From a virus, in the IMG/VR virus record IMGVR_UViG_3300021197_001603, positions 1 to 39,845 of that record: a DNA stretch of 39,845 nucleotides, one strand, 5' to 3'. Made by a program: the position numbers and the translations under genes. Shown here piece by piece: positions 1-35,860 of this stretch. Under the pieces are notes generated by a model. That model ran no database searches, was not told the origin of the DNA, and worked only from the letters and a program-made list of their open reading frames with translations. Numbering within the stretch: position 1 is the stretch's first letter; each line of letters begins with the position of its first letter.

Positions 1-739
1 GCTGTTTATAAGCGACCCCTCAGAAAGTAATAAAGAAAAATGCAAGGCTGCTGCTAATGCTGCTGCTAATGCTGCTGCTAATACTGCTGCTAATGCTGCT
101 GCTAATGCTGCTGCTAATGCTGCTGCTTGTGCTGCTAATGCTGCTGCTAATGCTGCTGCTAATAATGCTGCTTGTGCTGCTGCTTGTGCTGCTAATGCTG
201 CCCTATCAGTAAAAGAGGCAATACTTAACTACCTAAGCAAGCTTGAAGATCCAAAGCCACAAGCAATTAAATCTACTGGACCAAAGCCTCATGAATTTAG
301 TCCTCATAATCTATCAGTGTTAAGCCATAAAGCCCAAACAGCTATGAACACCCTTGAATCGCTTGATTACTTATATAACGAGGCAGAGCAATGGAAACCA
401 CCTCTAGGCAAGAAACCTGAATACCTGAACGATAAGCCAGTATTCACCCAAGCCATGGCTGATGCTGGGGAGTTGCCGCCAGTTGGGTATCTAGCAATGT
501 TTAAGATTAACGGGGTGATGGTAGAGGGTCTTGTAAAGGCGAAGACTAAAAAGTTTATTATCTTTGACGCCGACGGTGATGAAAGAGTTAGGCAGATTGG
601 CGAGTGCACCATCAAACCAACCCAAACAGAGCGCGAAAAGGCTATTGAAAAGTGTATGAGTGTCGGAGGCTTGCGCGCTAGAGATGGTGCTAAAGAAGTT
701 TATGGAAGCCTTTATGATGCTGGACTACTAAAATGCTAA
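1..739 (+). CDS. 3' part of Ala/Asn-repeat phage protein (joins the gene at 39667)
   Basis: The frame is open from the left window edge (first full codon at base 2) to the TAA at 737-739, giving 245 visible residues. An internal GTG at 317 has no Shine-Dalgarno site, so I do not take it as the start. After about 15 residues comes a stretch of alternating AAAN, AAAC and related units (residues about 16-67). A conventional C-terminal domain follows, with the motif LPPVGYLAMFKINGVMVEG and a tail ending YGSLYDAGLLKC; tails of this kind are common in uncharacterised phage proteins. The frame matches the truncated gene at the right edge exactly: bases 39844-39845 plus base 1 give AAG. The joined protein would be 305 residues. 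Function is unknown. The Ala-rich part resembles the low-complexity segments of phage proteins sometimes labelled putative immunity proteins, but this is only a resemblance. Confidence 0.8.
   Translation, partial: LFISDPSESNKEKCKAAANAAANAAANTAANAAANAAANAAACAANAAANAAANNAACAAACAANAALSVKEAILNYLSKLEDPKPQAIKSTGPKPHEFSPHNLSVLSHKAQTAMNTLESLDYLYNEAEQWKPPLGKKPEYLNDKPVFTQAMADAGELPPVGYLAMFKINGVMVEGLVKAKTKKFIIFDADGDERVRQIGECTIKPTQTEREKAIEKCMSVGGLRARDGAKEVYGSLYDAGLLKC
47..202 (+). repeat. Imperfect 12-bp GCTGCTGCTAAT tandem repeat inside a coding region
   Basis: About 13 units of a GCT-GCT-GCT-AAT codon block, some shortened by one codon and some with TGT in place of AAT, run in frame and encode Ala-Ala-Ala-Asn/Cys. 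Unit lengths change only in multiples of three, so the reading frame is kept. Such arrays can expand or contract by slippage, so the copy number may differ between relatives or be misassembled. Confidence 0.9.
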
Positions 740-4761: not shown

Positions 4762-6960
4762 ATGGCTGAAGCGATTATACAGATAAACGAGAGTGACGAA
4801 GACAACCAAACTGATCTAACTGGCGCTAGTTTGCTGGCTAGTTATTTTGCTGTATCTAACGGTGTTGCTATCCCCCTGCCTAACATAGCTGACCTGTTTA
4901 GCGATCAGGTATTAGCTGAGGTTGGAACTAACGTTATTAACGGCTATCAGGCAGATCTTGATTCTATGCACGGATGGTCTGAATTAGTAAAATTAGGCAT
5001 GGAGCTAGTCAAACAAGAGACTCATGCCAAGTCCACACCTTGGGAAGGGGCTAGCAACTTTAAATCACCTACACTTATGCAAGCGGCTCTTAAGTGGTCA
5101 GATAGAGCGTCAACTGAACTACTAAGGCAAAAGGATATTGTTAAAACCTCAGTAATAGGAAAGGACCAAGACGGCGAAAAGCTCAAACAATCCGATCGTG
5201 TTGCCGAATACTCTAACTATCAGCTCAATATTGAGATGGAAGAATGGCGAGAGGAGCACGAAAAGCTTTTATACAAGATCCCCTATGATGGAGTCGTATT
5301 TAAAAAGACCTTCTTTGATTTTAGAGAGGGCCGACCCATATCTAATGTGATCACCTATCCCAACTTTGTTGTAAACAACAACACTGAAAGCGTGGCTAGG
5401 TTGCGTAGATTTAGCGAAACAATCGTTTTATCAAAGAATGAGGTGTTAGAGCGTCAACGCCAAGGCATATGGCTAGATGTAAACCTTTCATTTGGTGCCG
5501 ACCCAGGCAATGAGGATGATGAAGATCAGGCAGAAGCTGATCAAATGACAACCTTTATCGAACAGCAGGGTTTTTTTGATTTGGATAATGACGGCTATGA
5601 GGAGCCGTATACCTTTGTTGTGGAGCTAAATTCTAGAACAGTGGTAAGAATAATTCCAAGGTTTGAGCCCTCAGACGTCTTGATAAAAGATGAGGCCAAT
5701 CTAAGAGCGGCTAAGCTTTCAGATTTAATTAGCGATAATGGTTCTTTGTCTGAAGCTGGTGGACAGAGAGAGATAGTAAGGATAAAGCCCGTAGAAAATA
5801 TAACTAAGTATGGTTTCCTTAGAGATCCAGACGGCGGATTTTTGGACGTTGGCTACTCTCATTTACTAGGCGCCATGACTTCAGGCATTAACGCTACTAC
5901 AAATCAACTTGTTGACGCTGGAACACTGGCTAATAGGCAAGGCGGTTGGTTAGCTAAAGGATTTAGGCGCAAGATGGGCAACTCATCATTTAAGCCTGGG
6001 GAGTGGAAGCAAACAGGTATTAACGCGCAAGACCTAAGAAACGGCGTAGTGCCTTTACCTGTTAAGGAGCCTAGTGGTACTTTATTTTCACTAATGCAAT
6101 TCATGATAGCAAGCTCACAAGAGCTGTCAGCATCTGCGGACCTAACCAAGGCATTAGGCGCTAACGCACCAGCTACAACAACACTCGCATTAGTTCAGGA
6201 GCAACAGCAATCAGCAGGCGCAATAATCTTGAGAATATACCGCGCTATGAGCTCGGAATTTAAAAAGCTATTTATCATTAACTCCAAGTTCCTTGATCCT
6301 GAAGAGTACCAGGAAGTGTTAGACGACCCTAACGCCAACTTTGAACAAGACTTTAATGTTAAAAAAATGGATATAGTTCCTATTGCTAACCCTGAAATTT
6401 CAAGTAAGATACAACGTATTCAACAAGCTGAAGCTGAATTAAGTAGAGTAGAGCTTGTTCAAGCTGTCGGCGGTAATATTCGTTCAATAGTAAAAAGGTT
6501 TTATGAGGCGATTGGTTCACAGAATGTTGAGGAGATATTCCCAGATCTAGGGCCACAGGATCAGCTACAGAAATTGCTATCAGAAAATCCAGATTTGGCT
6601 AAGTTAATTAGCGGAGAGGCTGAGAGATTAGATTTAATAGCAGCAGCTCAAACCGATGCAATAGCACAAGAGGAGGAAAGGAAAGACTTAGAGGCAGCAA
6701 TAAACGCCGATAAGGTAGCAAGTGAGATCAGCAAGAACGAAAGCGCTACTATTCTGAACCTTGAGAAGGCAGAAACGGAGCAAACCAAAAACGAGTTATC
6801 GGTGTATACATCTGAGTTAGATTTAGACGCCAAACAACTGCAAAACCAGCAAACTTTGCAGCAACTACAACAGCCACAGGAGCTGAATAACGATGGTACT
6901 AACCAAGCAGGATCTACAGAGCTGGCACAGCAACCCAGTGACCCAAGTAATGCTAAGTAA
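4762..6960 (+). CDS. Portal protein
   Basis: 732 residues, close to the 725 of the P22 portal. Family hallmarks include ETHAKSTPWEGASNFKSPTL, a nucleic-acid-facing N-terminal region, RVAEYSNYQLNIEMEEWREE, and PYDGVVFKKTFFDF. The region after about residue 600 is a long Glu/Lys/Gln-rich coiled coil with a Gln-rich tail, as in barrel-bearing podovirus portals. The dodecamer forms the DNA channel and binds terminase outside and gp4-like adaptors after packaging. The ATG has AAGG about ten bases upstream. The 3' end overlaps the next gene by 68 bases in another frame. Confidence 0.92.
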   Translation: MAEAIIQINESDEDNQTDLTGASLLASYFAVSNGVAIPLPNIADLFSDQVLAEVGTNVINGYQADLDSMHGWSELVKLGMELVKQETHAKSTPWEGASNFKSPTLMQAALKWSDRASTELLRQKDIVKTSVIGKDQDGEKLKQSDRVAEYSNYQLNIEMEEWREEHEKLLYKIPYDGVVFKKTFFDFREGRPISNVITYPNFVVNNNTESVARLRRFSETIVLSKNEVLERQRQGIWLDVNLSFGADPGNEDDEDQAEADQMTTFIEQQGFFDLDNDGYEEPYTFVVELNSRTVVRIIPRFEPSDVLIKDEANLRAAKLSDLISDNGSLSEAGGQREIVRIKPVENITKYGFLRDPDGGFLDVGYSHLLGAMTSGINATTNQLVDAGTLANRQGGWLAKGFRRKMGNSSFKPGEWKQTGINAQDLRNGVVPLPVKEPSGTLFSLMQFMIASSQELSASADLTKALGANAPATTTLALVQEQQQSAGAIILRIYRAMSSEFKKLFIINSKFLDPEEYQEVLDDPNANFEQDFNVKKMDIVPIANPEISSKIQRIQQAEAELSRVELVQAVGGNIRSIVKRFYEAIGSQNVEEIFPDLGPQDQLQKLLSENPDLAKLISGEAERLDLIAAAQTDAIAQEEERKDLEAAINADKVASEISKNESATILNLEKAETEQTKNELSVYTSELDLDAKQLQNQQTLQQLQQPQELNNDGTNQAGSTELAQQPSDPSNAK

Positions 6961-35346: not shown

Positions 35347-35481
35347 ATGTGTGATTATATAGGGTGCTCAACACCTCCCGAGTTTTACGATTTTATGGGT
35401 GATCAGGTGTGTGATGATTGTATGGAACGTGAAGTTGATAACGGTGCAGATCGTGAAGACTTCGAAACGATAGAGAGTTGA
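35347..35481 (+). CDS. 44-residue zinc-knuckle protein
   Basis: MCDYIGCSTPPEFYDFMGDQ and then VCDDCMEREVDNG. Two cysteine pairs (residues 2/7 and 22/25) match a small zinc ribbon. The acidic C-terminus is disordered. It lies directly before the Cys-x-x repeat gene. Confidence 0.5.
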   Translation: MCDYIGCSTPPEFYDFMGDQVCDDCMEREVDNGADREDFETIES

Positions 35482-35485
35482 TATT

Positions 35486-35860
35486 ATGGCAACTGAAATA
35501 TTTAAAAATTTATCTGCATTTAAAAAACGCAAAGACAAAAAAGTTAACGGTGTAAGCAAAAAGTTTGCTGCCACCTTCCCAGAATACGAAAGCTACAACA
35601 GCACTAATGAAGGGTGCTGGAATTGTGTTGAGTGCAAGGAGTGTATTAACTGTGTTAATTGCTGTAATTGCCGAGAGTGTAAAGGCTGTAAAACATGTAT
35701 CGATTGTAGTGATTGCGTAGATTGCCAGTATTGCGACAACTGTAGAGAGTGCGACAGATGTGTAAGGTGCGAGAGCTGTGTTAGCTGTGACTTTTGCACT
35801 GATTGTACTGAATGCGCAGAGCTAGAAAACCATTCTCAAGTAGTAGTAACATCAACTTAA
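35486..35860 (+). CDS. Cys-x-x triplet-repeat protein
   Basis: 124 residues. Residues 44-112 are 23 consecutive three-residue units, each starting with Cys (for example CWN, CVE, CKE, CIN, CVN, CCN, CRE), giving 24 cysteines with no break in register. The 43 residues before are basic (FKKRKDKKVNG), and a short hydrophobic tail follows. The other positions are mostly Asp, Glu, Asn, Arg and Val. Similar Cys-triplet proteins occur in some phages, where a few are loosely labelled caltractin. Their role is not established to my knowledge. A stacked metal-thiolate or beta-solenoid structure is conceivable. Confidence 0.75.
   Translation: MATEIFKNLSAFKKRKDKKVNGVSKKFAATFPEYESYNSTNEGCWNCVECKECINCVNCCNCRECKGCKTCIDCSDCVDCQYCDNCRECDRCVRCESCVSCDFCTDCTECAELENHSQVVVTST

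What the first reader, a model, noticed from the sequence alone, without database searches (positions are those of the whole stretch)
35486..35860. 23 unbroken Cys-x-x triplets in a 124-residue protein
Residues 44-112 have Cys at every third position for 23 units, too regular to be a zinc finger. Every third residue points to one face of a helix-like or solenoid structure, giving a ladder of thiols. Possible roles are metal storage or sensing, redox buffering or a cross-linked sheath. The gene sits in the early accessory region with another small zinc-knuckle gene directly before it.
Basis: partly seen in the sequence, partly recalled or inferred. Interest (0 to 1): 0.7.

Follow-up and report, generated by a model that had tools for sequence, protein, structure and literature searches.

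The report
Phage protein with all-cysteine repeat core
A bacterial virus carries a small gene whose protein places a cysteine at every third position 23 times in a row; it belongs to a large, virus-borne family with no described function in the papers and family libraries searched, which keeps its cysteines almost without exception while everything between them changes, and most likely folds into a thin coil lined inside with sulphur.

Summary
In detail: 23 unbroken Cys-x-x units at residues 44-112 of a 124-residue protein, against at most 10 in 20,000 shuffles, and not a DNA microsatellite. The protein belongs to a large virus-borne family: an N-terminal cap (two types), 9 to more than 50 Cys triplets, and an optional C-terminal domain. 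In 98 relatives found without using the cysteines, 2,746 register positions are Cys and 16 are not; the residues between them change freely. Two lines suggest a beta-solenoid with inward cysteines: an AlphaFold model (good cap, moderate solenoid), and a C-terminal domain that follows Cys triplets in some phages and hexapeptide or pentapeptide solenoids in others. Array length shows no modulus, which fits a length-tunable module. YcaO is absent from all 16 records tested, so a thiazole peptide is unlikely; insect antifreeze, the database label, fails its TCT motif. Function is not shown. My best guess is a phage accessory solenoid held together by a thiol or metal-thiolate core; a metal or thiol sink is the main rival. 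Aside: in two phages the paralogues and 17 other proteins share a C-terminal tag.

The parts
35486..35860 (+). Cys-triplet protein gene, 124 aa
   Evidence: relatives
35486..35614 (+). N-terminal cap, type A (residues 1-43), consensus xTxIFKSYxEFxxREDKxxNGVSxxFAxxxPxxExxNxTNxG
   Evidence: alignment A2 of 33 sequences; AlphaFold pLDDT 90 or more over residues 1-40
35615..35821 (+). 23 Cys-x-x triplets (residues 44-112), predicted beta-solenoid with a beta bridge in nearly every triplet
35822..35857 (+). short C-terminal tail LENHSQVVVTST (residues 113-124); no C-terminal domain in this member
   Evidence: model pLDDT under 50 here
35472..35477 (+). purine-rich AGAGAG, candidate ribosome binding site inside the end of the upstream gene
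   Evidence: sequence
35347..35481 (+). upstream small gene with four Cys (C2, C7, C22, C25), zinc-knuckle-like by eye, 4 bases before the Cys-triplet gene; a neighbour, membership not shown
   Evidence: no Pfam or NCBIfam match

Best explanation
A phage-encoded accessory protein built as a capped beta-solenoid. The N-terminal cap seeds a thin coil; each Cys-x-x triplet points its Cys inward and two residues outward, so the number of triplets sets the length. The coil is too small for an ordinary hydrophobic core, so it is held by the stacked cysteines, which in the reducing cytosol would most likely be metal-thiolate or packed free thiols rather than disulfides. The outer residues, which vary freely, form the working surface, probably for binding a host or phage partner during infection. 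Shown: family, register, strict Cys retention, modular architecture. Predicted: solenoid. Inferred: metal or thiol core, cytosolic site, binding role.
For: Cys kept at 2,746 of 2,762 register positions in 98 relatives found by cap or C-terminal domain rather than by Cys; the 16 exceptions (8 of them Ser) stay in register, with one off-register break. Pairwise identity in the array: Cys 98%, first outer residue 40%, second 19%. AlphaFold model: cap pLDDT 90 or more, regular E--E--E pattern along the array. Inward spacing of three is that of the 12-residue beetle antifreeze beta-helix (PMC8038014). One C-terminal domain follows Cys triplets (L071, L082), hexapeptide repeats (L377, L378; phrog_7964) and pentapeptide-like repeats (L376), so the array stands where other beta-solenoids stand. 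Another C-terminal domain follows cap A or cap B arrays alike among the 80 best of 393 viral loci. Triplet number 9-51 with no modulus. No hydrophobic signal-like stretch in the N-terminal 50 residues.
Against: Solenoid confidence is moderate and falls from about 84 to under 50 along the array; the other four models were worse (50-62), and in a second model the array had pLDDT 40-61 and no regular structure. Foldseek found no PDB match and only weak viral-library matches. If Cys served packing alone, Ser or Ala should be tolerated more often. No metal and no binding partner has been identified.
Confidence: 0.42

Rival explanations
1. Metal or thiol sink: the array is a cytosolic capacity protein that buffers Cu(I), Zn(II) or oxidants during infection, and the solenoid is only its container.
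For: Near-absolute retention of Cys over Ser; free variation of triplet number and many paralogues per genome both fit a capacity trait; cytosolic Csp3 proteins are a precedent for Cys-lined cores that store Cu(I) (PMC5171941).
Against: No metal-linked family among the 25 commonest families of 120 neighbour proteins; the array stands where non-Cys solenoids also stand; nothing measured.
Confidence: 0.22
2. Disulfide-laddered solenoid like the beetle antifreeze fold, oxidised after lysis or in the periplasm, serving as a rigid extracellular or virion part.
For: Same inward spacing of three, with Cys pairs in TmAFP (PMC8038014); weak profile match to 1ezg, E 0.0052.
Against: The 1ezg score is largely composition bias (bias 40 against 16 bits); no signal peptide; only a slight excess of even run lengths (36 to 26 in the unbiased set; 43 to 39 overall); not in the virion gene block.
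Confidence: 0.15
3. Precursor of a thiazole-containing peptide (TOMM), as in heterocycloanthracin with its Cys-Xaa-Xaa repeats.
For: Same repeat in a Bacillus bacteriocin precursor (PMC2674419); TIGR03601 hits a Paenibacillus Cys-triplet protein from the same pattern scan, below its cut-off.
Against: No YcaO in 16 phage records including the window; radical SAM only in Campylobacter phages, which carry many; a folded cap instead of a leader, and often a folded domain after the array; the window protein has no TIGR03601 match.
Confidence: 0.04
4. Artefact: microsatellite or chance reading frame.
For: Many hits of a pure DNA pattern scan were microsatellites.
Against: No tandem repeat in the gene, conserved cap, relatives in many phages, Cys conserved while neighbours vary.
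Confidence: 0.01

Closest known systems
phrog_15341 (phage proteins of unknown function)
   Same: Cys-triplet array, matches residues 44-115 at E 1.4e-11; same layout of cap plus array
   Different: The window protein matches only from profile position 42: its cap is type A, while most phrog_15341 members seen here carry the type B cap
Heterocycloanthracin / sonorensin precursors (TIGR03601, PMC2674419)
   Same: Repeating Cys-Xaa-Xaa unit, variable in number
   Different: Those have a leader plus a C-terminal core and maturation genes in the genome; none of these found here
Beetle antifreeze protein TmAFP (PDB 1ezg)
   Same: Inward residue every third position in a thin beta-helix; relatives of the window protein are annotated as insect antifreeze protein
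   Different: TCT motif absent (0 of 3,600 adjacent triplet pairs), every inward position Cys rather than every second, no signal peptide, relatives in Campylobacter phages from poultry
Copper storage proteins Csp3
   Same: Cytosolic, 18-19 Cys lining a core (PMC5171941)
   Different: Four-helix bundles; the array here is predicted beta, not helical
Phage hexapeptide and pentapeptide repeat proteins (phrog_7964, phrog_5070)
   Same: Solenoid module followed by the same C-terminal domain in some members; occur next to Cys-triplet genes (L350, L356, L362)
   Different: Other repeat length and other core residues

Membership tests
phrog_15341 | Significant profile match to the Cys-triplet array | tested here: met
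   E 1.4e-11, residues 44-115; also found in 17 of 17 related records
phrog_15341 | Family N-terminal cap (profile positions 1-41) | tested here: not met
   Match starts at profile position 42; the window carries cap type A. It is a relative by the array, with another cap
Heterocycloanthracin/TOMM precursor | TIGR03601 match above cut-off | tested here: not met
   no match at E up to 1
Heterocycloanthracin/TOMM precursor | YcaO maturation enzyme in the same genome | tested here: not met
   0 of 16 phage records; an enzyme of the host cannot be excluded
Beetle antifreeze protein | 12-residue repeat TCTxSxNCxxAx with aligned TxT | tested here: not met
   0 of 3,600 TCT pairs across 157 arrays; no Pfam match
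Beetle antifreeze protein | Beta-helix with an inward residue every third position | tested here: inconclusive
   Cys every third residue fits; solenoid only predicted at moderate confidence
Metallothionein | Tight binding of several metal ions by thiolates | not testable with these tools
   needs protein
Csp copper storage | Four-helix bundle lined by Cys | tested here: inconclusive
   array predicted without helices, but model confidence is moderate
Beta-solenoid (general) | Stacked beta coils in a structure | tested here: inconclusive
   predicted bridge per triplet; module exchange with hexapeptide and pentapeptide repeats

The most novel reading that the evidence does not exclude
An undescribed class of beta-solenoid whose core is made of cysteine alone, filled in the cell by a continuous string of metal-thiolate sites, used and expanded by phages (up to about 14 copies in one genome) and in one phage group addressed by a C-terminal tag to a common place.
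Probability: 0.25. Interest if true: 0.85.

Novelty: new variant of a known kind. Interest (0 to 1): 0.58.

Why it matters
If the solenoid holds, it is a minimal repeat fold (one inward residue type, three-residue unit) that can be changed in length at will, and a test of whether a protein core can be a line of thiol or metal-thiolate sites. The family is common in viral contigs (at least 393 loci with one of its C-terminal domains), is mislabelled as insect antifreeze, and I found no paper on it in the library searched. Its near-absolute Cys retention makes a simple mutational test decisive.

Tried and rejected
Single-sequence searches in the viral and genome collections found nothing; profile and DNA-pattern searches did. 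The pure TGY pattern scan gave many microsatellites, so Cys retention was counted only on relatives found by cap or C-terminal domain, although a filter on a run of at least eight Cys still applies. Array length modulus 2-6: none significant. Coil period from autocorrelation: a weak peak at 5 triplets for hydrophobic outer residues (z 3.2-3.6 in about 170 tests), too weak to use. Foldseek and VIA-align gave no usable match for the window model or for the C-terminal domain model (best Z 3.6). Recurrent neighbours: none beyond ordinary early phage genes. Host genomes: in a sample of 369 genomes from the class of the genome holding L157 (titled Shewanella abyssi), the C-terminal domain gave one weak hit that a look at the locus did not bear out, and the cap/array profile gave two weak hits without a cap. 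The radical SAM neighbour in Campylobacter phages was judged unspecific. Two genome searches failed for a wrong handle.

Full report
Observation. The ORF at 35486-35860 encodes 124 residues with Cys at 44, 47 ... 110, 23 unbroken triplets. Shuffling the protein 20,000 times never gave more than 10. The DNA of the gene holds no tandem repeat and the Cys codons are mixed, so the period is kept by selection on the protein. The upstream ORF ends 4 bases before the start codon, and a purine-rich AGAGAG lies 8 bases before the ATG.

Setting. The record is a viral contig of 39,845 bases with portal and head genes, tail genes, lambda-like replication genes, an Erf annealing protein, an exonuclease, an endolysin and a holin-like gene. 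Its portal is closest to that of an Alcaligenes phage and its replication protein to Vibrio phages. The Cys-triplet gene lies downstream of the recombination genes and upstream of the lysis genes, on the same strand.

Family. Pfam and NCBIfam have nothing; PHROGs gives phrog_15341, function unknown, matching the array only. A protein search of phage records finds relatives in Vibrio phage 1.238, Flavobacterium phage FL-1 and Campylobacter phages, the last often with several copies each. The cap of the window protein (type A) recovers 38 viral loci and aligns almost without gaps through the repeat. A second cap (type B) occurs on other members. A C-terminal domain with an invariant M-x2-W-H-x-C-x-T-T-H-C-x2-G-W follows many arrays; 393 viral loci encode it, and in the best 80 it is preceded by a Cys-triplet array or, in a few cut or short cases, by its remains. 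The window member has no such domain.

Cys retention. In 98 proteins found by cap or C-terminal domain, 2,746 register positions are Cys; 16 are not (8 Ser, 2 Ala, 2 Leu, one each Phe, Thr, Ile, Gly), and one break leaves the register. These were filtered for a run of at least eight Cys, so badly broken arrays are under-counted. Across the 33-sequence alignment the Cys columns are 98% identical in pairs, the two outer positions 40% and 19%. Outer residues are mostly Ser first and Asp, Gly, Arg, Asn, Tyr or Ser second. Triplet numbers run from 9 to 51 in complete members with no modulus; near-identical pairs differ in number (L263 and L264, 28 and 25; L266 and L281, 30 and 50).

Fold. AlphaFold gives a good cap and a regular one-bridge-per-triplet pattern along the array, with confidence falling towards the end and worse alternative models. 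A second model, for a relative with the C-terminal domain, left the array unstructured but gave a confident helical C-terminal domain. Neither model has a clear relative in the PDB. [quoted passage not shown] Independent support comes from module exchange: a different C-terminal domain follows Cys triplets in L071 and L082, hexapeptide repeats in Chryseobacterium and Bacteroides phages (L377, L378) and pentapeptide-like repeats in a Listeria phage (L376). Mycobacterial proteins run from a GSxATxGS repeat straight into Cys triplets. I read the array as a beta-solenoid with a probability of about 0.75.

Mechanism. What is shown is a capped, modular, Cys-strict repeat array in phages. That the cysteines point inward is predicted. 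That they form a thiol or metal-thiolate core is inferred from the absence of a signal peptide, the rarity of Ser, the lack of a clear preference for even numbers and the small size of the coil. That the outer surface does the work is inferred from its variability and from the other solenoids in the same position. A metal or thiol sink explains the Cys strictness and the variable number equally well and is the main rival. A thiazole peptide is unlikely: no YcaO in 16 phage records, a folded cap, and folded domains after the array. The antifreeze label in databases rests on Cys content: TCT occurs 0 times in 3,600, and the match to 1ezg is mostly composition bias.

Novelty. In the library searched I found no paper on this family; the nearest is the Cys-Xaa-Xaa bacteriocin precursor of Bacillus (PMC2674419). 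Most subscription papers and all bioRxiv preprints are missing from it, so the absence is not proof.

In passing. Two viral contigs carry about 14 and 9 matches to the family. In six stretches of them, 21 of 23 Cys-triplet ORFs end in a motif like RKLEPDL or RRLELEL, and so do 17 of the other 151 ORFs, many of them apparently unrelated. This looks like a C-terminal address or docking peptide; no control for chance was run.

Noticed in passing
L379, L380, L381-L384 (contigs G390 and G012): Shared C-terminal motif [RN]xL[EDN]xxL at the end of 21 of 23 Cys-triplet ORFs and 17 of 151 other ORFs, many apparently unrelated; looks like a C-terminal address or docking peptide in this phage group.
   Followed up: partly
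G390 (about 14 matches), G012 (about 9), L049, L086: Strong expansion of Cys-triplet paralogues within single phage genomes, some back to back.
   Followed up: partly
window 47-201 (ORF 2-739, +): Tandem repeat coding AAAN and AAAC units near the start of a protein matching phrog_3483.
   Followed up: no
L166, L175, L209, L212, L237 (three titled Mycobacterium): Bacterial proteins with a GSxATxGS hexapeptide-like repeat running into about 12 Cys triplets and ending NCSGLRxAVGLRDVHA or similar.
   Followed up: no
L003, 5001-5800 (Flavobacterium phage FL-1): The C-terminal domain lies in two frames after the array, and the annotated CDS (5113-5457) starts 112 bases downstream of the family start, so in another frame.
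   Followed up: no
L350 3293-5291; L356 1807-2514; L362 4576-5223: Other ultra-regular solenoid genes (GNAxVS and DVRGYQ repeats) beside Cys-triplet genes.
   Followed up: partly
window 35347-35481: Small four-Cys protein gene directly upstream, zinc-knuckle-like by eye.
   Followed up: no
L273 residues 147-162 (alignment A4): Invariant H-x-C-x3-H-C cluster in the C-terminal domain, a possible metal site; the model is least sure there.
   Followed up: no
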